From contig VGHE01000002.1 in the NCBI GenBank assembly GCA_016868315.1, positions 372,001 through 436,000 on the forward strand: 64,000 nt of DNA. Reading direction: 5' to 3'. This document shows positions 5,481 through 27,908 of the stretch, in pieces. The DNA comes from Betaproteobacteria bacterium. Lineage in GTDB: Bacteria > Bdellovibrionota_B > Oligoflexia > Silvanigrellales > Silvanigrellaceae. Position 1 is the first letter of the stretch, and the number at the start of each line of letters is the position of its first letter. The notes beneath the pieces are model-generated. The model ran no database searches. It had not been told where the DNA came from and saw only the letters and a list, made by a program, of their open reading frames with translations. Position numbers and translations under genes: made by a program.

Positions 5481-6122
5481 ATGAAATTTCAATCTCGTGC
5501 TCTTGGGGTCATGTTTGCTGCAATCGTCATTTCAGCGTCGGGTTGTAGCAAAAAGGATTCCGATGCAGCGACATGCAGTGGTGGGTATCAGCTTGAATCG
5601 CTCTGTTTCAAAGGCCAGACCAACGCAAATTTGGTTTTCAGCAGTGGATCCTTGAGCGGAACAGGGAGTGCAGTTGCGGTTGAACCTCTTTCCGAGAAGA
5701 CTGCCGGTGGCCGCAATATTGCGATTTCGTTCAGCATTCAAGACGGTGGTAGTTTTGAGCTCAGAACCTTTGCGAGGAACGACCTAAGCGGCGGTATTGA
5801 TATTAAGTTTTCAAGAAGCTCTGGTAAGTTAAATATGAGTTTTAAGCAGGGTGAAACTGCTTCATCTGCAAAAGAACTCGAAGGAATCGATGCTTCTGCC
5901 GAGGTAAAGCTTTATATTGACGTTCATAACGATGAGTCGCCTGCTCATGTTATTGTTTGGAATGGTGCCGGTTCTTTCAACAAAGAGCAGTCCTTGCACA
6001 ATTCCGAGGACAGCGGTGCAATTCAGCCTGCTGCGCAGGGTCTTGATAAGTACTGGGGTGTTGCCCTCAATAGAGCGACTCTGTCGAAAGTGGCTGTAGG
6101 TGAACCTAAAGATGAGGATTAA
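5481..6122 (+). CDS. predicted lipoprotein, first gene of the metal-uptake operon
   Basis: 213 residues with lipobox SASGC (Cys22) and SD GGAGG seven bases before ATG 5481. The mature part starts with a second Cys pair and continues as a beta-strand-rich domain whose pattern (ISFSIQDGGSFELRTF, VKLYIDVHNDE, HVIVWNGAG, KYWGVALN) resembles a jelly-roll/concanavalin-like fold. Several His/Asp/Glu clusters (VHNDESPAH, LHNSED) could bind metal, but this is speculation. It overlaps the following outer-membrane gene by 11 bases and heads the five-gene operon, so a surface or periplasmic accessory role in metal capture is the natural guess. No known family recognised. Confidence 0.7.
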   Translation: MKFQSRALGVMFAAIVISASGCSKKDSDAATCSGGYQLESLCFKGQTNANLVFSSGSLSGTGSAVAVEPLSEKTAGGRNIAISFSIQDGGSFELRTFARNDLSGGIDIKFSRSSGKLNMSFKQGETASSAKELEGIDASAEVKLYIDVHNDESPAHVIVWNGAGSFNKEQSLHNSEDSGAIQPAAQGLDKYWGVALNRATLSKVAVGEPKDED

Positions 6123-7191
6123 GAGGGCGAGTGCTTTTGCTTTGGCCTGTAGCGTCGTGTTTTTCGCGCCACTGTGCTCTGCTCTGGCAGATACTGGCGG
6201 GCTCAAGACCTTCGTTGCGGTCGATTTGGTCGGCGAGGCGTTTGTCCGGAGCAAGGTGGTCTCACCGCGTGAAGTAGAAGTGCGCGGCGTTGAGGTGTTC
6301 TTTTTAGCTCCTGTCGACCCTCTTTTTGATGCGGCTGTCGGGATTGCTGCTCATCCAGAAAATGGGGTGTCGCTGTTTGAGTTGCATGAAGCAACGCTCA
6401 GTTCTTCGAAGTTGATTCCGCATACACAATTGCGCATGGGAAAAGGTTTTCTCTATATAGGCAAGCTGAACCGAATTCATCAGCACGATTGGCCATTCAT
6501 TGATTCCCCCGAGGTTCAAAGGTCATTTTTTGATGATGAAGGAGTGAATGACCTGTTGCTTGAGGTAACAGTCAACACTCCTACATCCATGCCGTTTGAA
6601 GCAACAGCAGGCGTGGCGAAGGGCTGGGTATACGGACATGCTCACAACGAAGGTAAGCGACCCCAGGTGCCCACACACTATAGCCGAGTGCAAACCTTTT
6701 TCGATTTGCCGTTGGGTGGTGCACTGCAAGTGGCAGGTAACTACCTCGGACGCACGGCGTCTGATTCGGTACAAACACAACTGTTCGGTGTTGACCTGAC
6801 TGCAAAATGGCGCGAGGGGCGACGGGTTCCTCTTCTGCTGCAGGGCGAAGTTTGGTTGCGGCGCGTGAAGGCCCCTCAAGTTGATCGTGAAGACGCTCTG
6901 GGAATGTACCTTTTTCCGCAAATGAATCTGCTCGACAGCCTTGATTTTGGAATACGCTTTGATCAGTTCTCGGTTCTCACAACAGAGGATGCTCTGGGTG
7001 AATCTATCGACATTTCCAGCTACAGAATTGTGCCCACGTTGACTTATAAACCAAGCGAGTTCTCGACCTTCCGGATTGCCTACGCGTGGGATTTGAAGCG
7101 TCGCGGAGATGCAACTCCGAATGTTACGAACTCAAGTCTTTTGGCGCAAATGACGTACGTGATAGGTGCGCATCCTAGTCATGAATTTTGA
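6112..7191 (+). CDS. predicted outer-membrane beta-barrel, metal-uptake operon
   Basis: 359 residues with a Sec signal peptide (MRIKRASAF start, cleavage after SALA) and a beta-barrel-like alternation ending in a hydrophobic strand close to the C-terminus. The block KLNRIHQHDWPFIDSP, followed by FFDDEG, looks like the signature region of porin-like proteins found beside zinc ABC importers in other bacteria (recalled from family knowledge, not searched). I chose ATG 6112 over GTG 6100 because it opens directly on the signal peptide. It overlaps both the upstream lipoprotein gene (11 bases) and the downstream SBP gene (11 bases), so the three are translationally coupled. Likely role: passage of a metal or metal complex across the outer membrane. 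No TonB box seen. Confidence 0.65.
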   Translation: MRIKRASAFALACSVVFFAPLCSALADTGGLKTFVAVDLVGEAFVRSKVVSPREVEVRGVEVFFLAPVDPLFDAAVGIAAHPENGVSLFELHEATLSSSKLIPHTQLRMGKGFLYIGKLNRIHQHDWPFIDSPEVQRSFFDDEGVNDLLLEVTVNTPTSMPFEATAGVAKGWVYGHAHNEGKRPQVPTHYSRVQTFFDLPLGGALQVAGNYLGRTASDSVQTQLFGVDLTAKWREGRRVPLLLQGEVWLRRVKAPQVDREDALGMYLFPQMNLLDSLDFGIRFDQFSVLTTEDALGESIDISSYRIVPTLTYKPSEFSTFRIAYAWDLKRRGDATPNVTNSSLLAQMTYVIGAHPSHEF

Positions 7192-18266: not shown

Positions 18267-18788
18267 ATGGACGTGCAAGGCAGACAGGCATCATCAAGCC
18301 AGACGGTTTTGTGTTTCAAAGAGGAAATGCGCGCTCCATTCCAGGGAGTGCTTCCCGAGATTTCGGTATATTTTGAGAACCGCGATCAGCTTGCGCGCGC
18401 GCTTGAAGTGCTCATCGCCAATTCCAATCTGGCAGCAAGTACAATGCAGCATGAGGGCTCTTCGAAGCGAGAGTTGCTCTCGCAGCGTCATTCTCCTCGC
18501 GAAATTGTTCAATTGGTTCAGGCAGGACGACATATCCTTTTGAAGAAAACCTTTGGCCTTCCAGACCTTGGTGTTGGTGTGCTTGAAGACACCATACGCC
18601 TTGATTTTCGTCCTGGAACTGAATGGGACGATCAACAAATTAACCGCTTGTTCGATACTCTAAAGGTTCTTCGTGGGCGTACCCAGATCTCTGATATCTG
18701 CCTCGACGAAATGTCTGAACACTTTTCAATGGCCGGCACCAGCGGTTTTCAAGAGCTGCTGGATGGAGAATCTGCAGAGGATGAATGA
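18267..18788 (+). CDS. hypothetical cytosolic protein, coupled to the CDF exporter gene
   Basis: 173 residues with no signal peptide or membrane segment. Features: HSPREIVQLVQAGRHILLKK and PGTEWDDQQINRLFDTLK, with an acidic C-terminus (EDE). SD GGGAGA six bases before ATG 18267; a TATACT at 18230 may be its -10. Its last eight bases overlap the start of the metal exporter gene, which suggests a joint transcript and a possible regulatory or metallochaperone role, but no metal motif is visible. Family not recognised. Confidence 0.65.
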   Translation: MDVQGRQASSSQTVLCFKEEMRAPFQGVLPEISVYFENRDQLARALEVLIANSNLAASTMQHEGSSKRELLSQRHSPREIVQLVQAGRHILLKKTFGLPDLGVGVLEDTIRLDFRPGTEWDDQQINRLFDTLKVLRGRTQISDICLDEMSEHFSMAGTSGFQELLDGESAEDE

Positions 18789-19851
18789 TTCGACCTCTTG
18801 TGCATCTCCCTGCAACCAGCAACACGTTTTGACGTTGGATGTTACCGAAATCCAGCGTCGGCAAAAACAAGTGCTCTCTGTGCTGATTCTTACCGTTATC
18901 ACAATGGTTGTTGAAATTGTTGCAGGGCATATCACCGGATCCATGGCTTTGCAGGCTGATGGCTACCACATGGGCTCGCATGCAGGTGCCCTGGGAGTTG
19001 CATTTCTCGCCTATCGGATGATGTCTTGGGAACGCATTCGGTCGCGTATGAATTTCGGTTCCGGTAAGATTCTAGCACTCGGTGGTTACTCGAACGCGAT
19101 TGCGTTGGGATTTGTTTCTCTTTGGATGATTATTGAGTGCATTGAACGGTTGCTTTCACCCAAGGCAATCAGTTTCGATGAGGCATTGGCTGTCGCAGTG
19201 CTTGGATTGATTGTGAATCTTGCAAGTGCATGGCTGTTGGGTTGGGAAGGTGGTGTCGGACACCATCACCACGGCGAGCATCACCACGGCGAGCATCACC
19301 ACGGCGAGCATCACCACGGCGAGCATCACCACGGCGAGCATCACCACGGCGAGCATCACCACGGCGACCATCACCACGGCGACCATCACCACGCTGACCA
19401 TCACCACGCTGACCATCACCACTCTACCGATCACAACCATCACGCAGCGTTGGTGCATGTGCTCGCGGATGCTCTCACCTCAGTGTTTGCAATTGTTGCA
19501 CTTCTTGTGGCTCGTCAGTTTCCCTCGGCGGCCTGGTTGGATCCTGTTATGGGCATTGTTGGTGCGCTTGTGATTCTTCGTTGGTCTTGGTCACTCGTGA
19601 AACAGACTGCAGTTGAGTTGCTCGACTTTCATCCGCGCGGTCTTTCTTTGCAGGATCTCAAGGCTCAGATTGAGAAAGACGGGCATCGTGTTTGGGATTT
19701 GCATGTATGGAGTCAGGGACGTGGCGCGCTCGTAGGAATGTTATCAGTGACGCCCGCTCATCCGGAAGCGGATTTTAAGAAGTATTTTTCGGAACACGGG
19801 CGGAGGATTCATCTCTCAGTTGAGAGAATTCACCGCGCACAATCACATTGA
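18781..19851 (+). CDS. CDF cation exporter, DmeF-like (Co/Ni type), His-rich loop
   Basis: About 356 residues. Six-helix cation diffusion facilitator of the inner membrane that exports divalent metal by proton antiport. Site A appears as ADGYHMGSHAG (Asp60, His63, His67), the pattern of the DmeF cobalt/nickel group, with its partner block HVLADALTSVFAIVALL in helix V. Between helices IV and V lies a very long cytoplasmic loop of HHHGE/HHHGD/HHHAD units that probably buffers or senses metal. The cytoplasmic C-terminal domain (LKAQIEKDGHRVWDLHVWSQ) is present. ATG 18781 overlaps the upstream gene; the longer frame from 18673 is a shadow. Metal identity is by motif only; Zn is the alternative. 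Confidence 0.88.
   Translation: MNDSTSCASPCNQQHVLTLDVTEIQRRQKQVLSVLILTVITMVVEIVAGHITGSMALQADGYHMGSHAGALGVAFLAYRMMSWERIRSRMNFGSGKILALGGYSNAIALGFVSLWMIIECIERLLSPKAISFDEALAVAVLGLIVNLASAWLLGWEGGVGHHHHGEHHHGEHHHGEHHHGEHHHGEHHHGEHHHGDHHHGDHHHADHHHADHHHSTDHNHHAALVHVLADALTSVFAIVALLVARQFPSAAWLDPVMGIVGALVILRWSWSLVKQTAVELLDFHPRGLSLQDLKAQIEKDGHRVWDLHVWSQGRGALVGMLSVTPAHPEADFKKYFSEHGRRIHLSVERIHRAQSH
19264..19422 (+). repeat. 15-bp coding tandem repeat (His-rich loop of the CDF exporter)
   Basis: Ten consecutive 15-bp units from 19264 to 19413 plus a partial unit CATCACCAC. Six identical copies of CATCACCACGGCGAG (HHHGE), then two ending GGCGAC (HHHGD) and two ending GCTGAC (HHHAD). The six exact copies including silent positions point to recent expansion. 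Unit length is a multiple of three, so copy-number change would leave the frame intact. Confidence 0.97.
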
Positions 19852-19855
19852 ATTT

Positions 19856-20677
19856 TTAACCTGCAAGCGCTTTCAAGCGTCTCAAGATGGATTCGGCAGT
19901 TGAGAAGTCGACTTGGGTAGAGGCATCCGAGAGTGCCTTTTCGGGCTGGGTGTGCACTTCCATGAAAAGCGCATCAATGCCAACAGCGAAGGCAGCTGCG
20001 CACAGACTGGGAACCATATCGCGCAATCCAGACGATTGTCCGGAACCTGCTCCCGGGAGCTGGGCAGCATGGGTTCCATCGAATACAGTTGCATAGCCGG
20101 AGCGGCGCATCAGCACCAAATTGCGATAGTCGACCACGAGGTTGTTGTAGCCAAAAGAGCTGCCGCGCTCGCACAACAGTACTTTGGGATTGCCTTCTGC
20201 GGCAATAAAGTCGGCGCAGGCAATGAGCTGTTCGGGTGAAGTGTGCTGCCCTTTTTTGATTTGCACGGTTTTACCGGAGGCTGCACATGCCTTCAGGAGA
20301 TCTTTTTGGTCGCAGAGGAATGCGGGCACCTGAACGATGTCGACGACCTCGGCTGCTTCGCGCGCCTGTCCAGGGGTGTGAACATCTGTGAGCACGGGCA
20401 CGTTAAATTGTTTGCGCACATCGGCAAGCCACTCCAACCCTTTTTCGAGTCCAGGGCCACGCGCCGTGTTGCCACTGGTGCGGTTGGCTTTGTCGTAGCT
20501 GCTTTTAAAAACGTAGTTGAACCCGAGCTCAGTGCACAGTGCTTTCATGCGCGTGGCCACTTCGAAACCAAGCTCCTTGGATTCGAACATGCAGGGCCCG
20601 GCAATGATGGTCAGTGCCTTTGGGCTGAGAGAAAGTTTTTCGTTGAGGCGACCTGCCCAGCTGTGTTTGTAGGTCAT
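19856..20677 (-). CDS. kdsA: 3-deoxy-8-phosphooctulonate (Kdo-8-P) synthase
   Basis: 273 residues. Condenses phosphoenolpyruvate with arabinose-5-phosphate to Kdo-8-phosphate for LPS inner core. TIM-barrel motifs: IIAGPC (Cys29), KSSYDKANRTS, LTDVHTPGQ, KKGQHTSPEQL, RGSSFGYNN, DGTHAAQLPG and FMEVHTQPEKALSD. A Cys at the IAGPC position, where E. coli KdsA has Asn, marks the metal-dependent class; the other metal ligands His, Glu and Asp lie in DGTH, MEVH and ALSD. ATG 20677 has AAAGGA at six bases and overlaps by ATGA the upstream KdsA-like gene. Tail-to-tail with the CDF gene, four bases apart. Confidence 0.95.
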   Translation of the reverse strand: MTYKHSWAGRLNEKLSLSPKALTIIAGPCMFESKELGFEVATRMKALCTELGFNYVFKSSYDKANRTSGNTARGPGLEKGLEWLADVRKQFNVPVLTDVHTPGQAREAAEVVDIVQVPAFLCDQKDLLKACAASGKTVQIKKGQHTSPEQLIACADFIAAEGNPKVLLCERGSSFGYNNLVVDYRNLVLMRRSGYATVFDGTHAAQLPGAGSGQSSGLRDMVPSLCAAAFAVGIDALFMEVHTQPEKALSDASTQVDFSTAESILRRLKALAG

Positions 20678-21366
20678 TGGTTTTCCTTTCGTGCCGACAT
20701 CCAGTGCTCAAGAGCTTCAGGATTGAGTTCCCGGCGTGTGGGCAGAATCAGAAATTGAACGTCGAAAGCGACCGCTGTGCGCACAAAGGCGGCGTCAAAA
20801 TCCGTGTTTGAAAGCCAATGCGGGCGATGCTCGTAGGAGGTGCCCTCTGCGGCCGTGAGGGGATTCAGATTCAATGCAATGGGACACCCGGTTTGTGCCA
20901 TGATGGCGAGAGCGCGCGGATCGAGAACGCGATCGGAGTAGCCAAACGACGACCCGGCTTCCACAAGAACAACACGTTCGCGTGCGTCTCCCAATTTGTC
21001 GACCGCCCTAACGATATCGCTGGGTGCGAGAAATGCGCCTCGTTCAAGCAGAATGAGCTTTCCGGTTTCAGCTGCGGCTGCGAGCACATCGCCCTGCCGG
21101 CAGAATTCACCCGGAATGTAGAGGCGTTCGTAGGACGCGCTGCCTTCGAGGATTTGCTCTGGTGTTGTGACTGCGAGACAAAAGGGCTGCAGCCAACCGC
21201 GCCGTTCCATGAAGGACTGCGCTGGTTCGGGGTGACCAACCCGCCACAGGTTTTGCCCTTGAAGCGGCGCCCGCATCGTCGAAGGAAGTTTTGCATGGCG
21301 CTGGGCGTTCATGGCATCCACAAAACAAGAACCCATCGGGATGGGTTTGGGCGAGTGTGTTTTCAC
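20674..21366 (-). CDS. KdsA-like protein lacking catalytic residues (predicted pseudoenzyme)
   Basis: About 230 residues. The C-terminal two thirds align by eye with the neighbouring KdsA: AVTTPEQI against DVHTPGQA, IPGEFCRQGDVLAAAAETGK against VPAFLCDQKDLLKACAASGK, LLERGAFLAPSDI against IKKGQHTSPEQL, and VEAGSSFGYSDRVLDPRALA against CERGSSFGYNNLVVDYRNLV. The catalytic Lys (KKGQ to LERG), the metal His (DGTH to NLNP) and the IAGPC Cys region are lost, so Kdo-8-P synthesis is not expected. GTG 21366 has GGAG nine bases upstream; a TTG at 21393 is the alternative. It overlaps kdsA by four bases (ATGA), so the two are made together; a partner or regulatory subunit for KdsA is an inference. Confidence 0.75.
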   Translation of the reverse strand: MKTHSPKPIPMGSCFVDAMNAQRHAKLPSTMRAPLQGQNLWRVGHPEPAQSFMERRGWLQPFCLAVTTPEQILEGSASYERLYIPGEFCRQGDVLAAAAETGKLILLERGAFLAPSDIVRAVDKLGDARERVVLVEAGSSFGYSDRVLDPRALAIMAQTGCPIALNLNPLTAAEGTSYEHRPHWLSNTDFDAAFVRTAVAFDVQFLILPTRRELNPEALEHWMSARKENQ

Positions 21367-21423
21367 TCTGGACGTCTCCGCATTGTTGCTCAAAAACTGA
21401 CAGAAAGTCTCTACCGGAAAGGC

Positions 21424-21454
21424 AAAAGGCCGTCCAGTTGAGCTGACGGCCTTT
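21424..21454 (-). terminator. terminator downstream of the PilZ gene
   Basis: Ten-base stem AAAGGCCGTC (21425-21434) with GACGGCCTTT (21445-21454), loop of ten. On the minus strand the stem is followed by TTTT, so it ends transcripts coming from the PilZ gene. It also separates PilZ from the KdsA-like/kdsA unit, implying a separate promoter for the latter within about 55 bases. Confidence 0.75.
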
Positions 21455-21494: not shown

Positions 21495-21950
21495 TCAGGA
21501 TGCCTTGGTGGATTGTGTGAATTGGCCGGCGTCTTCAGGTGCACCCCGGAGTGTCAGAACATCAATGATCTTCTGAATCAGATAGTCCTGTTCATGACTC
21601 TCGGGCTCAAAAATACCACCGGCTCTGAGCATGCGCGCGTCGTACCATTTCACCTGAATTTTGAGCTTCAGCTTTGCTGGAGCCAGAATACCAAATGAAG
21701 CCAATGGCACGTTCATGGTGAGGCGCGAACCTGGTTTAAGCTTGACGGGATTGACAAACTCAATCTTGAAACCCTGCCAAGAGAGGTCGAGCAATACGGC
21801 GCTGGCCAGAGATAGCGGGTTCCACATGCTCATTTTTACGTCGACAAGCGCATGGCTCTCAATGCGTTTGGCACGCTTGACAATTGAGCTGCCATCGCTG
21901 CCCTGGCTCTGATCGCCCGGGCTATTTATAAACTTCGAAAACACAGGCAT
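21495..21950 (-). CDS. PilZ-domain-like protein
   Basis: 151 residues. The PilZ c-di-GMP signature is partly visible: a basic N-terminal segment KRAKRIES (RxxxR-like spacing) and LDLSWQGFKIEF (D-x-S-x-x-G), followed by the strand pattern PGSRLTMNVPLA and a C-terminal helix (YLIQKIIDVL). The ligand motif is close to, but not exactly, canonical RxxxR, so c-di-GMP binding is likely rather than sure. ATG 21950 follows GGGGGG. It is a single-gene unit ending in its own terminator. Confidence 0.7.
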   Translation of the reverse strand: MPVFSKFINSPGDQSQGSDGSSIVKRAKRIESHALVDVKMSMWNPLSLASAVLLDLSWQGFKIEFVNPVKLKPGSRLTMNVPLASFGILAPAKLKLKIQVKWYDARMLRAGGIFEPESHEQDYLIQKIIDVLTLRGAPEDAGQFTQSTKAS

Positions 21951-22024
21951 GACTCGTCCCCCCGAAACGCTCCCGATCTCAGATCACAGGAGAGATTCGG
22001 TCGAATAACGGGGGAACTGAAGAA

Positions 22025-24172
22025 TCAGCTGTTATTTTTTTGTTGGGATTTTATTGCCGCAGGAGCAGCGTGGATTGCCGGCGCCGAGCGCAATCGCCCG
22101 AGCAATTGCTCCAGTGCAAGAAGTGCCAAGGCGAGAGCCAGCAGCCAGGGATAAGCCTCGAGTATCGGAATCATCCGTTGTTCTCTAAATTCGTTGATTT
22201 TTTTGAGGCTCGACACAAAATCACCGGATGCTTTGAACAGTTCCTGAGGAAAAAGAGTGGGATTGGGCAGAGTTTCGCGTGTTCTACTTGTACCCTCGAG
22301 CACCGGCCAGACTAACGCGCGCGGCGTGTGCCCCGCAGGGGCACCCAAAGATGCCTCACTCATTTGCCAGTTCAGCCCCAGTGGCTCAAAACGTGGTGCA
22401 AGTGTGGCATCGCTGCCAGGCAATATGCCACTCGGCGGTGTGCCTGAATTTAAACGCGCCCCAATGCTTTGCTGCCACTTGATGGCCTCCACATCGAGGT
22501 GTGCCAGCCAAACGGGGGAGGCAATTTTTGCACCGAATGACTCGCCACGACCTTGCAGCAGTGCTCGTGCGGGAAGACCTCCGCGTGAGCGCACAGCATG
22601 GAGTGGATCGTCGCGGTAAATGCGTGGGCCAGCGAATTGCGGAGGACGCAGTCCGCTGTCTTGGCGCCTTTGCAGAAATTCAACCATCCATTGTACCAAG
22701 AATTCGCTCGCATCCAGCGATGCCACACGGTTTGCTCTTTGCACGGCGGTGGTCGCTTCACGCTGGGTAGAAGAGGTGTGCCAGTCACCTGCGAGGAAGG
22801 CCAAGACAAGGCCTTTTCCGACAGGATAAGCAATGACCACAGGTGAGCGGCTTTCATCCGCTGTTTGAGCAAGTACAAGAGCACCTGGTTTGGGCTTGCA
22901 GCCCAGAGCGGTTTGCTTCGTAACAATTGAACTGACAGCTGTTTCGAACTGAGGTTCGGCCATGAGTCGACTTTTGCCAGCTTGCCAGCGGTGCTCATTC
23001 TCGAAATCGAAGGTCGGAACGTTTTCGCAGGGCATTAGGTCGCGGATATTGGAATCACGCGCGAGGAAGCTGAGCGCACCTGCCTGCAACACCATGCGTC
23101 CACCGTTGGCACTCACGTATTCAAACAGATGCTGCGCATCGCGTGAATTAAGATATGTGTCGAAGGCAAAATTCTGAGCCAGAACGCCATGAAAATTTGG
23201 CAACTGTTGCCCAAAAAGTTTCTCAGAGGGGAATTCAATGAGCGACAGCTGGTTACTCGGAATCGAAAGGTCATCGTTGACCTCGCGCAGAATGTAATAG
23301 CTCAATAGGTCAAGGTTGGGCCAGAATTTTAGCTTGGAACGCAGTTGTCGCATGCTCCAGTCGGGACCAACACCGACGTGCAGTACTGTTGTCTTGGAGT
23401 GGACAACGGAGATGGCTGTTGAGGCCATGTTGAGCGGAACCGGACTCAGCTCAGAGGTTAATTCGGCTGTGAGAAGTTGTTGCTGCGCTCGTGTAAAATA
23501 GACCGGAATGTTTTCAATGGTGTTCACTACGCCATTGGCGTCGGCCTGGACACTGACAGGTTGGCTCGCAAGCACAGATTCTCCAGAGCGCACCACAACT
23601 TCAAAGTTTTGCTTTTCTTGTGGTTGAAGCCGACCCACGATGTCGAGCGAAAGCTGAGTTGGTTCACCAAGAAAGTTGAGTTGTGGTGCGGAGAGATCTG
23701 AAAGAACCAGATATCGCTCGGGAGTGTTGCTTCTCTGTTTCCAACCCAATTCCTCCGGGCGCATCATCAGCAACATGCTGGCCTTGTTTTCCGTGAGCTG
23801 CTCTACAGAACGCCGAAAGTTGCGTGCACCTGCACCCCAGAGATTGGCTTGGCCTACAATCACTTGAGGTCCTGTGGCTGTTTTCAAGTATGCGAGGAGT
23901 TCTTCGTAATCTTCCAAGGGTGTTTGGGTTGCTGAGCCCCAAGTGCGAAAGCCAATCAGTACATCGCGGTCGAGTGACAGCTTGTCTCGTAAGCGTTGCT
24001 CGGCCTTCTTCTCGTCTGTATCTGAGCGAGGCAAGTTTGCATCGATCCAAACAGTGAGTCGTGCGGGAGGTTGCCGGTCAATGCTCTTCTCAAGAAAAGG
24101 TACAACCACGGGAAGAATAACCAGAGCGAGGATCGCTATTCGAAGAATGATCTTTATGAACGATGCGATCAT
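22025..24172 (-). CDS. large membrane protein with glutamine-amidotransferase-like fold, DUF58-operon type
   Basis: 715 residues, last gene of a three-gene operon. One N-terminal helix (residues 6-26) and one C-terminal helix (YPWLLALALALLALEQLL) place the middle in the periplasm. The middle has a GATase1-like core, seen in TTVLHVGVGPDWSMR, VSANGGRMVLQAG and PVGKGLVLAFLAGDW; this is the layout of the big membrane proteins that accompany DUF58 and BatA-like proteins in many bacteria. No catalytic Cys triad is evident. ATG 24172 overlaps the previous gene by ATGA. Function of these clusters is largely unknown; roles in envelope integrity are proposed. Confidence 0.65.
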   Translation of the reverse strand: MIASFIKIILRIAILALVILPVVVPFLEKSIDRQPPARLTVWIDANLPRSDTDEKKAEQRLRDKLSLDRDVLIGFRTWGSATQTPLEDYEELLAYLKTATGPQVIVGQANLWGAGARNFRRSVEQLTENKASMLLMMRPEELGWKQRSNTPERYLVLSDLSAPQLNFLGEPTQLSLDIVGRLQPQEKQNFEVVVRSGESVLASQPVSVQADANGVVNTIENIPVYFTRAQQQLLTAELTSELSPVPLNMASTAISVVHSKTTVLHVGVGPDWSMRQLRSKLKFWPNLDLLSYYILREVNDDLSIPSNQLSLIEFPSEKLFGQQLPNFHGVLAQNFAFDTYLNSRDAQHLFEYVSANGGRMVLQAGALSFLARDSNIRDLMPCENVPTFDFENEHRWQAGKSRLMAEPQFETAVSSIVTKQTALGCKPKPGALVLAQTADESRSPVVIAYPVGKGLVLAFLAGDWHTSSTQREATTAVQRANRVASLDASEFLVQWMVEFLQRRQDSGLRPPQFAGPRIYRDDPLHAVRSRGGLPARALLQGRGESFGAKIASPVWLAHLDVEAIKWQQSIGARLNSGTPPSGILPGSDATLAPRFEPLGLNWQMSEASLGAPAGHTPRALVWPVLEGTSRTRETLPNPTLFPQELFKASGDFVSSLKKINEFREQRMIPILEAYPWLLALALALLALEQLLGRLRSAPAIHAAPAAIKSQQKNNS

Positions 24173-27015
24173 GGTTCAAGCCCCAGGCTGCGGATGCGGT
24201 TGAGAATCTCAGGAAGCTGCATTTGGTCTTCCTTGTAGTCTGTGGTCAGCAGAGCATACATCATGTTTACGAACGACCGAGTGCGGTATTCGTCGTCGGT
24301 AATGAAGCAGTCGGCTCCCTCACTCGTGTTGGTCAGGAAGCGGGCAGGTGTCACAATACCCATGGGTGCTTGTGCGTTGATTTTTTTGCGCAGGGTAAGC
24401 ACCAACGTGCGCTCGGGCGAGCATCCATCGAAAGTCGGCAGAAGATAAAAGCTGCGGTAAAGCAAGCCGCGTCGTTTGGGTGATTCCCACACCAACCCAA
24501 TACTGGGATCGGTGCTGGCCATCATCCACTCGGGGGTCTGGCGCAAGGAGATTCCCTCTGCAATCACAACTCCTCCGGAACGGATGTGCTGGGTGACACG
24601 TGCTGCTTGGAGTGCCTCAAGCGATGACGTCCACCAAATTTCAGCAGCTCCAACACGGCACGCGCCCGCCAGCATTTCTTTCGGGAGGTCAATGGTGCCG
24701 CGGTTAGCCAAGAGCCGCTGAAGTTGTGAATAGCGTTGTTGCACGGGTTCGGGCACCGTTGCATCGCACCATGCAATTCGAAACGGAAAGGTGCTTGTCT
24801 CGGGACGACCGTCCTGGCCACGCTGTACTCTTGTATCGAAGGGAACACGATTGTTCTGAGCTTCGGCTCGCTGTGCAAAAGACAGAGTTATGAGCGTGAG
24901 CACACCAATTGCTTGCGGCATTGGTGTTGTTTGACCGCGCTTGTTTCTCTGGCGGTACTGCAGCAACCAGAGCAGAGCAAGACTTCCAAGTGCGAGAAAC
25001 ATACCCGAGAATTGCCACGCGGCAGCCTGAGTCTGGGTGGAGTTGCTGTTCTTTATTTTTCCCTGTCCGCGCGGAAAAAGCTTGTTGAGGTCTTGTTGTG
25101 AGAGTGTTTCGCCTTGGCGCTCCAGAGGCGGAGGCTCCACGACAACAATTTGGTCGTCGCGTTCGCGAATATACAAAGCTGGCAGCGGCTGAAGAGGTGT
25201 TTTGCGGTTCTCGATAAGAGCCCCTTTAAGGGTGATGTTGTCGACCTGGTAGCGCAGAGGGGGAGTGTTATTCCTGCGTTGTGAATCGATCCAGTTGACC
25301 CATTCGCTGGGCGTGTTGAGTTGCACGCGAGTCAGCAATGGCGAACGTTGTCCCATCTGCTCCTTGATGTTGTTCCACAGCCCAGCCCATTTACCCCAGC
25401 GCCCCAATTCTCCGTTGGGGGCAGCGCCTCCGGTACGGAGATAGACAGTCGGAGGACGCGTCGCTAGCTGATAGGCAAGGGGTGTGCCGTCGGCTGCGCG
25501 CAAAAGAATTTTATACGAGGCCTGCGGTTCAGCTGATTCGAGTGTTTCCGAGGCAGCATCGTTAGTTGATCGCTTCAAGTTGGTCGAGATGCTGCGTGGC
25601 TTTACGCGCGGAACTGCTCCATCCATCTCCCAGGGGAAATTCAGAGGAGAGGGAGGCAGAGGCAAGAGTGGCATGCGCACTGTTGGTTGGTTGGCTTCAA
25701 GTTGCAGAGTTACGCTCTCGAGTCCTGAATCGAAGCCCTGCAGGCGTGTGTCAGCAATGTAGACCAAGGCATCGGTCTCCGGGGCAAAGCCCTCGGGGAT
25801 CCAATGTCGGCCTTGTTCAAAAAGCGCTCCGGTAATGAAGTCGTTCATCGGAATCACCCAGACAGAGGCGCGACGGTACTTCCAAGGATCGGAGGCTTCT
25901 GCCGCGCGCGCGCTTGTGGCTGACTCCGTGGAACGGCAGGCAAGTGGGCGCAGTGGGATTTGAAAAAATGTTGCGTAGGCGCGCAGATCTGAGAGGCCGT
26001 CGAGCTCACTGGGGCCTGCGACATCAAGTGTGCAGGTGGTGAGCAAAGGTTGTGGCAGGCGCTGCGCCTGTGCCCCTCCAGGGGTGGGTTCTTCAGCAAC
26101 AAAGAGCGAGAAAGGTGTTGCTTGAGCTCGCTTTTGCTCTGCATCGGGAGGGAATTCCTCTAGGCTCAAGACCGGACGCGCCTGCGCAGGGATATGACGC
26201 GCCATTGCGTTCTCAATACGAAGCAGATTCGGTGTTCCTGGGAGACCTCCTGCTGAAGTGTTCGATTCTGTGTCCGCAGGTTGCCACAGCTGTGCCAATT
26301 CATCGGGAACAATCGGAACACGTTTGCCTTGTAATTGTTGCGGTGTCAGTGGAGTGCGGATGATGTCGACCGCTTCGAACGACTCAGCGAGGCTCGCCAT
26401 CGGGCGCAGGGTGTCCGATTGTGCGTCGGTGATAAGTGTAAGCGGCACCTGCGCAGCCTCAAGTTTCAAATCACGTTTGAGTGATTCAACTAAAAGAGCG
26501 GTGTCGAGTGGTTGCGACAATGCGGTAGGTTGTCGGCTGACCTTTTCAAGATGTTGTTGCAGTGCAGAACTACTCACGCGAGTGAATTTGTAGAGAGCAG
26601 AGGTTTTCTCCGCCACGATGCTCTCGAAATCAAGCTCAATGAAGATGTACTCTGTTTTACGGAGTTGGCGCAGGGACTCTTGGATGGATTCGAGAATCTC
26701 GGGTGAGCGTTGTAAGGCTGCGATGTGCGAGAAGGTCGGGTCGAACCAAACAAGACCTTCACCTTGATTGCGCTGTTGCTCTTGCGGCTGTGATTGGGAG
26801 AAATAAGCTAATGCTGCACCTACAGTTGCGAGCAGCACAAGCAACCATTCCCACCACTGTGGTGGTGTGGTTTTGATGTTAGAGAATCTTTGTTCGTCTC
26901 TCTGGCCGAGAAAAAAACTAGGGATATTGATTCGGCGAGGACGCATACGCTGGATAAAAAGAATGGCGATAGTGACCAGTGACACGCAGGCCGAAATGAG
27001 CAGCAATTGAATCAT
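24169..27015 (-). CDS. BatA-like membrane protein with C-terminal DUF4159
   Basis: 948 residues. The N-terminus has a helix, then RPRRINIPSFFL and a second helix, the pattern of BatA-type aerotolerance regulator N-terminal domains. A long periplasmic region follows, then another helix near residue 645 (FSGMFLALGSLALLWLL) and a C-terminal domain of about 230 residues ending with RSFVNMMYALLTTDYKEDQM, which matches DUF4159 (usually NxxMYALTGNYKxDQ). ATG 27015 with AAGGA at seven bases and ATGA overlap with the DUF58 gene decides the start; it also overlaps the next gene by ATGA. Two BatA/DUF4159 parts in one chain. Function unknown, probably structural partner of the DUF58 and GATase-like proteins. 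Confidence 0.75.
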   Translation of the reverse strand: MIQLLLISACVSLVTIAILFIQRMRPRRINIPSFFLGQRDEQRFSNIKTTPPQWWEWLLVLLATVGAALAYFSQSQPQEQQRNQGEGLVWFDPTFSHIAALQRSPEILESIQESLRQLRKTEYIFIELDFESIVAEKTSALYKFTRVSSSALQQHLEKVSRQPTALSQPLDTALLVESLKRDLKLEAAQVPLTLITDAQSDTLRPMASLAESFEAVDIIRTPLTPQQLQGKRVPIVPDELAQLWQPADTESNTSAGGLPGTPNLLRIENAMARHIPAQARPVLSLEEFPPDAEQKRAQATPFSLFVAEEPTPGGAQAQRLPQPLLTTCTLDVAGPSELDGLSDLRAYATFFQIPLRPLACRSTESATSARAAEASDPWKYRRASVWVIPMNDFITGALFEQGRHWIPEGFAPETDALVYIADTRLQGFDSGLESVTLQLEANQPTVRMPLLPLPPSPLNFPWEMDGAVPRVKPRSISTNLKRSTNDAASETLESAEPQASYKILLRAADGTPLAYQLATRPPTVYLRTGGAAPNGELGRWGKWAGLWNNIKEQMGQRSPLLTRVQLNTPSEWVNWIDSQRRNNTPPLRYQVDNITLKGALIENRKTPLQPLPALYIRERDDQIVVVEPPPLERQGETLSQQDLNKLFPRGQGKIKNSNSTQTQAAAWQFSGMFLALGSLALLWLLQYRQRNKRGQTTPMPQAIGVLTLITLSFAQRAEAQNNRVPFDTRVQRGQDGRPETSTFPFRIAWCDATVPEPVQQRYSQLQRLLANRGTIDLPKEMLAGACRVGAAEIWWTSSLEALQAARVTQHIRSGGVVIAEGISLRQTPEWMMASTDPSIGLVWESPKRRGLLYRSFYLLPTFDGCSPERTLVLTLRKKINAQAPMGIVTPARFLTNTSEGADCFITDDEYRTRSFVNMMYALLTTDYKEDQMQLPEILNRIRSLGLEP

Positions 27016-27908
27016 GAGCAAATCCTTAGCGCTGCGAGACGTGTCGTCAGATTTTTGGAGACGTCCGAGACTTCATGTTCCGGAGTCAACCACATTGAGT
27101 TCCAATTGCGCATATTCAACTCGCGCTCCAATTGTCGCAATTGGGTATTGATGTTTTCAAGATAAGCAAGACCACCATGAAAGTCCTGACCATCTTGAGG
27201 TGTGTTGCCAGGATTGGTGTTGGGCGCGGCGAAAGCAATTGTATCGCCGCTGCGCAGGATCTCGGAGGAAGTGATGTCGGGCGATTCCCATGCATCTCGC
27301 ACAACAACGACCATTCCTCGCGCCATGCGCACGTGCTTGAGTGCCGCGGAAAGCTCTTCGGTTGAGGCCGAGACACTGGTTGGGTCGAAAAGCATGTCGG
27401 TGATTACGTAACAAAAGTGCGAGCGGCGCAAGCGCGCTGCCTGCTGCAAGAGTGCTTCGCCCAGATTGCGTCCGCGCAGTGCAACTATTTCGACCTTCTG
27501 AGCCTGTTGGTTGTGAAGGTTCTCAAGCAGACCCGCAACAGCCCAGGCGGCTTGCATTTTGCTGGCGGAGGCCTGCGCAGAGCGGAACTCCATGTTGCCA
27601 TAGCAATGCACCAGCACACTCACATGAAAGCGACCCGGCGAGACATCGGTGCGTGTGAGCAATTCTTCTTGCAGAAAAAGATGTCGGGCAGAGAGTGCGC
27701 GCAGAGAATCGCCAGCCGTGTATGGACGGAGTCCGAGTCCGCTGCGGTTCGCTGATCGTTGAATGTTGCTATCTAGCGAGGCCTGCAGCCATCCGCGCTG
27801 CATACGCAGCTTGGCGCGCAGCTCCAGTGGGAGAGCGCGACCAGGGTGCGCGAGCGCAGGGGCATCGCAGCTTGAGGGGTAGGCTGTACAGAGCTCTGCT
27901 AATTTCAT
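27012..27908 (-). CDS. DUF58 domain protein, first gene of the BatA/DUF4159 operon
   Basis: 298 residues, soluble. The DUF58 signature region is RPYTAGDSLRALSARHLFLQ (the family has R-x-Y-x-x-G-D-x-x-R-x-I-x-W), followed by a von-Willebrand-A-like core with FHVSVLVHCYGNM, MQAAWAVAGLL and HFCYVITDMLFDP. The MIDAS-type Asp pattern is weak. ATG 27908 is chosen because the upstream frame runs into the divergent ilvA promoter region. DUF58 genes usually sit next to a MoxR AAA+ ATPase; none is adjacent here. It is translationally coupled to the 948-residue protein by a four-base overlap. Confidence 0.8.
   Translation of the reverse strand: MKLAELCTAYPSSCDAPALAHPGRALPLELRAKLRMQRGWLQASLDSNIQRSANRSGLGLRPYTAGDSLRALSARHLFLQEELLTRTDVSPGRFHVSVLVHCYGNMEFRSAQASASKMQAAWAVAGLLENLHNQQAQKVEIVALRGRNLGEALLQQAARLRRSHFCYVITDMLFDPTSVSASTEELSAALKHVRMARGMVVVVRDAWESPDITSSEILRSGDTIAFAAPNTNPGNTPQDGQDFHGGLAYLENINTQLRQLERELNMRNWNSMWLTPEHEVSDVSKNLTTRLAALRICS

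What the first reader, a model, noticed from the sequence alone, without database searches (positions are those of the whole stretch)
20674..21366. Degenerate KdsA-like protein translationally coupled to kdsA
The gene upstream of kdsA encodes a protein that aligns with KdsA over several blocks (VEAGSSFGYSDRVLD against CERGSSFGYNNLVVD; IPGEFCRQGDVLAAAAETGK against VPAFLCDQKDLLKACAASGK; LLERGAFLAPSDI against IKKGQHTSPEQL) but has lost the catalytic Lys, the metal His and the IAGPC Cys. The two genes share a four-base ATGA overlap, so they are made at a fixed ratio. A duplicated, inactivated Kdo-8-P synthase kept next to the active one suggests a regulatory or complex-forming subunit in LPS-core synthesis. 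I know of no described KdsA partner of this kind.
Basis: partly seen in the sequence, partly recalled or inferred. Interest (0 to 1): 0.75.

Follow-up and report, generated by a model that had tools for sequence, protein, structure and literature searches.

The report
Dead KdsA twin partnering active KdsA
Next to the gene for the enzyme that makes the endotoxin sugar Kdo, an entire order of bacteria keeps a catalytically dead copy of that enzyme; the active copy has lost an arginine found in all its sampled relatives and the dead copy has kept it, which suggests that the two proteins together form one working enzyme.

Summary
The ORF at window 20674-21366 (-) is a true KdsA homologue (NCBIfam KdsA model E=2e-20; predicted 8-stranded barrel, Z 22 to KDO8P synthases). 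It has lost the PEP- and metal-binding residues and overlaps kdsA by ATGA. It is not decay: it is intact in 13 of 15 Silvanigrellales genomes (the 14th a contig-split fragment; the 15th, an 83%-complete MAG, lacks kdsA too), beside kdsA in 12 of 13 assembled joins, under purifying selection (pairwise dN/dS 0.09-0.24), and absent from the other 43 genomes of the class. New finding: the Arg at A. aeolicus R106 is present in 24/24 class KdsA, absent from 14/14 Silvanigrellales KdsA and present in 13/13 KdsA-like proteins; F128 and K140 behave alike, and such sites cluster (3/5000 permutations). From memory, R106 binds the arabinose-5-phosphate phosphate of the neighbouring subunit. Best reading: an obligate KdsA/pseudo-KdsA heteromer in which the dead subunit supplies Arg in trans, like trypanosomatid 'prozymes'. 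Complex formation is inferred, not shown. Main caveat: all 14 Silvanigrellales KdsA gained Arg/Lys two residues on, which could compensate without a partner. No described KdsA partner of this kind was found.

The parts
20674..21366 (-). pseudo-KdsA (KdsA-like, 230 aa, GTG start)
   Evidence: KdsA homology; AF2 barrel pLDDT 83.4, pTM 0.84, Z 22.2 to KDO8PS; orthologues across the order
19856..20677 (-). kdsA, 3-deoxy-8-phosphooctulonate synthase with all in-cis catalytic residues but Asp at the R106 position
   Evidence: NCBIfam NF003543 E=3.7e-101, over its cut-off; residues tabulated
20674..20677 (-). ATGA stop/start overlap of the two genes
   Evidence: sequence
20684..20689 (-). AAAGGA, Shine-Dalgarno-like site for kdsA inside the pseudo-KdsA gene
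   Evidence: sequence
21376..21379 (-). GGAG, Shine-Dalgarno-like site for pseudo-KdsA
   Evidence: sequence
21097..21099 (-). codon for Arg90 of pseudo-KdsA (A. aeolicus R106, N. meningitidis R117), invariant in 13/13 orthologues
20309..20311 (-). codon for Asp123 of KdsA at the same position; Arg in 24/24 class relatives, never Arg in 14 Silvanigrellales KdsA
21425..21454 (-). hairpin followed by a T-rich run, likely terminator of the upstream gene, so the pair is probably its own bicistron
   Evidence: fold z-score -2.66; sequence. The consensus scanner did not list it

Best explanation
The gene encodes a catalytically dead paralogue of KdsA that serves as an obligate partner subunit of the active KdsA in Silvanigrellales. 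Canonical KdsA is a homotetramer in which an arginine after strand beta-4 (A. aeolicus R106, N. meningitidis R117) reaches into the neighbouring subunit's active site and binds the phosphate of arabinose 5-phosphate. After duplication the work was divided: KdsA kept every residue that acts inside its own active site but lost this arginine, and the twin lost the active site but kept the arginine and the patch around it. The active enzyme would then be a KdsA/pseudo-KdsA heteromer (2:2 is the simplest form), with the dead subunit supplying Arg90 to KdsA's active site and gating Kdo synthesis by its presence. Shown by sequence: homology, loss of catalytic residues, conservation, purifying selection, adjacency and the complementary residue pattern. 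Inferred: physical association, stoichiometry, and the in-trans role of Arg90.
For: Orthologues are intact in 13 of 15 genomes of the order, fragmentary in a 14th, and missing only where kdsA itself is missing (83%-complete MAG); none in the other 43 class genomes, with a clean score gap of >=148 vs <=78 bits. The pair sits side by side on one strand in 12 of the 13 genomes where the join can be seen. Purifying selection: pairwise omega 0.09-0.24 on the dead protein wherever dS could be estimated. Ten in-cis catalytic positions (C11, K41, K46, N48, R49, K124, R154, H185, E222, D233) are kept in 14/14 Silvanigrellales KdsA and none is conserved in the twins. R106: 24/24 outgroup KdsA, 0/14 Silvanigrellales KdsA, 13/13 twins; K140: 24/24, 0/14, 13/13; F128: 19/24, 1/14, 13/13. 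An unbiased scan for stretches where the dead twin is closer to ordinary KdsA than the active KdsA is finds three blocks (122-134, 145-161, 185-196); the best window is reached in 3 of 5000 column permutations. These blocks hold the positions mutated in N. meningitidis structures of the 4jte-4jtl series (R117, F139) and in A. aeolicus R106G 1t8x/1t96, and the twin-family profile scores those mutants lower than wild type. Position 106 varies freely in KdsA (K, D, E, L, H), as expected if its function moved to the partner. The Kdo pathway is otherwise present: kdsB and a KpsF-type A5P isomerase. Precedent: T. brucei deoxyhypusine synthase, activated about 3000-fold by a dead paralogue (PMC3663545).
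Against: No direct evidence of a complex; no multimer prediction could be run. That R106 acts across the subunit interface is from memory, since no open-access text in the library was found that states it. All Silvanigrellales KdsA gained Arg or Lys at A. aeolicus position 108 (14/14; Thr in 24/24 outgroups), which might replace R106 within a KdsA homomer. In genus g5 most KdsA have Lys at 106. Across all invariant columns, losses in KdsA and retention in the twin are not associated (3/12 vs 14/66, p=0.7), so the case rests on particular residues and their clustering. The pattern reflects a single evolutionary origin. Invariant new residues in the dead pocket (W41, E108, near-invariant E87) could mean a ligand-binding or catalytic role of its own.
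Confidence: 0.58

Rival explanations
1. Regulatory partner without arginine donation: pseudo-KdsA binds KdsA and tunes it by binding an effector in its rebuilt pocket, while KdsA's own Arg/Lys at position 108 replaces R106.
For: Arg/Lys at A. aeolicus position 108 in 14/14 Silvanigrellales KdsA; the dead pocket has new invariant residues W41, E108 and near-invariant E87; a conserved YxHRPxWL segment replaces the KdsA beta7-alpha7 loop.
Against: Gives no reason for R106 to be invariant in a protein whose own A5P site is destroyed.
Confidence: 0.2
2. Independent protein with a new function (new enzyme or binding protein, perhaps a homo-oligomer) that is merely co-transcribed with kdsA.
For: New invariant pocket residues; all Kdo8P catalytic residues lost; one genome tolerates an IscB-type insertion between the genes.
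Against: The strict co-occurrence with kdsA and the loss in KdsA of exactly the patch the twin retains would be coincidence.
Confidence: 0.15
3. Silvanigrellales KdsA has changed substrate (for example a non-phosphorylated sugar) and so needs no R106; the twin is unrelated to that change.
For: R106 lost in 14/14.
Against: The other A5P-binding residues N48 and R49 are kept in 14/14; kdsB and A5P isomerase are present; does not explain R106 invariance in the twin.
Confidence: 0.05
4. Decaying pseudogene of a duplicated kdsA.
For: Loss of catalytic residues and long branches in the tree.
Against: Intact in every genome where the gene is fully assembled, across two families, with pairwise omega 0.09-0.24 and many invariant columns.
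Confidence: 0.02

Closest known systems
[quoted passage not shown]
   Same: Homologous over beta4-beta6 (E=2e-20), same predicted barrel fold (Z 22, rmsd 2.9 A over 222 aa), keeps the CRQxD, FLAP and GYxDxVxDxR blocks
   Different: Lacks all PEP-, metal- and in-cis A5P-binding residues; beta1-alpha2 region rebuilt and shorter; below the KdsA model cut-offs
Trypanosomatid deoxyhypusine synthase with dead paralogue DHSp (PMC3663545)
   Same: Dead paralogue kept together with a catalytic paralogue of an enzyme that is a homotetramer elsewhere
   Different: Eukaryotic, different enzyme, heterotetramer and activation shown by experiment; here the complex is inferred, and the genes are adjacent in a bacterial LPS pathway
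Trypanosomatid AdoMetDC prozyme (PMC5201418)
   Same: Catalytically dead paralogue activates the enzyme by forming a complex with it
   Different: Works by relief of autoinhibition, not by donating an active-site residue
DAHP synthase type I and NeuB families
   Same: Same superfamily; Pfam DAHP_synth_1 matches weakly (E=6e-4)
   Different: Not closer than KdsA in any search

Membership tests
KdsA (functional Kdo8P synthase) | PEP-binding Lys/Arg (A. aeolicus K41, K46, K124, R154) | tested here: not met
   Glu at K124 in 13/13, Ala/Cys/Thr at R154, Trp at K46
KdsA (functional Kdo8P synthase) | metal/N site Cys or Asn, His185, Glu222, Asp233 | tested here: not met
   not conserved in the KdsA-like family
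KdsA (functional Kdo8P synthase) | score above curated NCBIfam cut-off | tested here: not met
   72.9 vs 242 bits and 69.2 vs 314 bits
KdsA fold/superfamily | (beta/alpha)8 barrel related to KDO8PS | tested here: met
   AF2 pLDDT 83.4, pTM 0.84; all of the listed best matches are KDO8PS, Z 20-22
KdsA fold/superfamily | intersubunit Arg (A. aeolicus R106) and Phe (Nm F139) | tested here: met
   R 13/13, F 13/13; positions confirmed by alignment to 1fwn. Their intersubunit role is from memory
Prozyme-type pseudoenzyme partner | catalytically dead paralogue by sequence, under purifying selection | tested here: met
Prozyme-type pseudoenzyme partner | co-occurrence with the catalytic paralogue | tested here: met
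   14/14 genomes of the order with kdsA, one twin fragmentary
Prozyme-type pseudoenzyme partner | catalytic paralogue impaired on its own | tested here: inconclusive
   R106 lost in 14/14 KdsA, but Arg/Lys gained at position 108; needs kinetics
Prozyme-type pseudoenzyme partner | physical hetero-oligomer with activation | not testable with these tools
   no multimer prediction or assay available

The most novel reading that the evidence does not exclude
Kdo8P synthase, elsewhere known as a homotetramer, is an obligate heteromer in the whole order Silvanigrellales: a dead KdsA paralogue supplies the substrate-phosphate-binding arginine to KdsA's active site in trans, so that one active site is divided over two adjacent genes.
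Probability: 0.45. Interest if true: 0.75.

Novelty: new variant of a known kind. Interest (0 to 1): 0.63.

Why it matters
Dead paralogues that complete or activate an enzyme are best known from trypanosomatids. This would be a bacterial case in a core LPS enzyme that is pursued as an antibiotic target, encoded by two adjacent genes and traceable through a whole order, with a single-residue prediction that one mutagenesis experiment can test. Annotation pipelines may call the gene KdsA or leave it unnamed, and so miss that kdsA alone may not be functional in these bacteria.

Tried and rejected
Global association test of residue losses between the paralogues: not significant, reported as such. 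Open-access literature for the in-trans role of R106/R117: not found. Search for a paper on Silvanigrella and KdsA: the 15 listed papers held no mention of Silvanigrella. Phage and plasmid records: ordinary KdsA-type matches, none covering 80% of the twin. The phylum search returned the same 58 genomes as the class search, so distribution outside this class was tested only by one close-relative scan of genome contigs, which gave two records that match the two other genomes of the window's genus. Tree placement of the twin relative to KdsA: unresolved because of long branches. A fused or multimer structure prediction was not run: the tool takes single native chains, and a contrived reading frame to join the two genes seemed outside its intent. 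The single in-frame TGA noted in G012 lies outside the intact 232-aa frame and is not decay.

Full report
What is there. The minus-strand ORF 20674-21366 (230 aa from GTG) ends in an ATGA overlap with kdsA (19856-20677). It is a genuine KdsA relative: BLASTP against its neighbour E=8e-17, NCBIfam KdsA models E=2e-20, and every significant PDB sequence match is a Kdo8P synthase. The neighbour is a full-length KdsA over the curated cut-off. The two genes lie downstream of a PilZ-like ORF (my reading; no Pfam match), with a hairpin and T-rich run in between, so they probably form their own bicistron.

Relatives. The window's genome holds one copy of each gene. Profile and protein searches find the KdsA-like gene in 14 of 15 genomes of the order; one of the 14 is a fragment split over contig ends in a 72%-complete genome, and the fifteenth is an 83%-complete MAG that also lacks kdsA. 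It is in none of the other 43 genomes of the class, where matches reach only KdsA; scores are >=148 bits for true members and <=78 bits for KdsA. The closest named records are an uncultured Silvanigrella MAG and a Proteobacteria MAG; Silvanigrellaceae lies in Bdellovibrionota/Oligoflexia. The gene lies directly upstream of kdsA on the same strand wherever the join is assembled except G010, where an IscB-type RRXRR/HNH gene sits between the two intact genes; in G009 the contig breaks there. The junction is -4 nt in the window's genus and -1 to +24 nt in most others; in G003 and G014 the longest frames overlap by about 40 nt but the start codons are uncertain.

It is maintained. Pairwise omega for the KdsA-like gene is 0.09-0.24 wherever dS could be estimated, though most dS values are near saturation; kdsA gives 0.04-0.14. 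Thirteen orthologues form one fully supported clade and the 14 Silvanigrellales KdsA another; the twin's exact attachment cannot be resolved because of its long branch.

Fold. AlphaFold2 on the 14-row family alignment gives pLDDT 83.4 and pTM 0.84 with eight strands in barrel order. All listed top structural matches are KDO8P synthases: Foldseek E about 1e-12, VIA Z 20-22, rmsd 2.9 A over 222 residues for the best. No KdsA rows were in the alignment, so the match does not come from KdsA sequences put in.

What it lost and what it kept. Residue equivalences were fixed by alignment to A. aeolicus KdsA (1fwn) and agree with the catalytic residues listed for N. meningitidis in PMC6650799. Ten in-cis catalytic residues (C11, K41, K46, N48, R49, K124, R154, H185, E222, D233) are kept in 14/14 Silvanigrellales KdsA, and none is conserved in the twins. 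The opposite holds for R106: 24/24 class-outgroup KdsA have Arg, 0/14 Silvanigrellales KdsA do (K7 D3 E2 L1 H1), 13/13 twins do. K140 is Lys in 24/24 outgroups and 13/13 twins but Phe/Tyr/Asp in all 14 KdsA. F128 is Phe in 19/24 outgroups and 13/13 twins but Trp/His in 13 of 14 KdsA. Scanning the whole alignment without choosing sites, the stretches where the dead twin resembles ordinary KdsA more than the active KdsA does are 145-161, 185-196 and 122-134 (window KdsA numbering); the best window is matched in 3 of 5000 column permutations. By contrast, a simple 2x2 test over all invariant columns shows no global association.

Mechanism. I recall that in Kdo8P synthase the R106/R117 side chain comes from the adjacent subunit to the phosphate of arabinose 5-phosphate, and that R117 and F139 of the N. 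meningitidis enzyme were studied as intersubunit contacts. The PDB holds these mutants (R106G 1t8x/1t96; R117K, R117Q and F139G in the 4jte-4jtl series), and the twin-family profile scores them lower than wild type, which confirms the equivalence of the positions but not the trans role. I could not find the trans role stated in the open-access library. Given it, the pattern reads as a division of labour: the catalytic subunit keeps what acts in cis, and the dead subunit keeps what acts in trans. A dead protein has no use for R106 in its own ruined site, and the free variation at this position in KdsA fits a function that has moved to the partner. T. brucei deoxyhypusine synthase is a proven analogue: an impaired catalytic and a dead paralogue form a 2:2 heterotetramer about 3000-fold more active (PMC3663545).

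Doubts. Every Silvanigrellales KdsA has gained Arg or Lys two residues after the lost Arg, which could compensate within a homomer; or it could face the two new glutamates (E87, E108) in the twin's pocket, which is speculation. The pattern arose once, so it is one evolutionary event. No complex prediction or experiment was possible. A role as an effector-binding regulatory subunit, or an unrelated function, remains open.

Verdict. The kind (a dead paralogue as partner) is known; in Kdo8P synthase it appears undescribed, judged only from the open-access library and memory.

Noticed in passing
L043 (G010:C1) 5902-7188 (-); contig break at the same place in G009 (L041/L042): An IscB-type nuclease gene (RRXRR E=1e-68 plus HNH) is inserted exactly between the intact pseudo-KdsA and kdsA genes.
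   Followed up: partly
window 18673-19851: A cation-diffusion-facilitator-like ORF with a long His-rich tandem repeat (HHHGE/HHHGD/HHHAD), convergent with kdsA.
   Followed up: no
window 20303-20305 and the equivalent codons in 13 related kdsA genes: Silvanigrellales KdsA have Arg or Lys (14/14) two residues after the lost Arg, where all 24 class relatives have Thr.
   Followed up: partly
window 21495-27021 (-): A PilZ-like ORF and two large ORFs upstream of the pair have no Pfam match; similar PilZ-like and large ORFs lie upstream in G010 (L043), so the neighbourhood is conserved.
   Followed up: no
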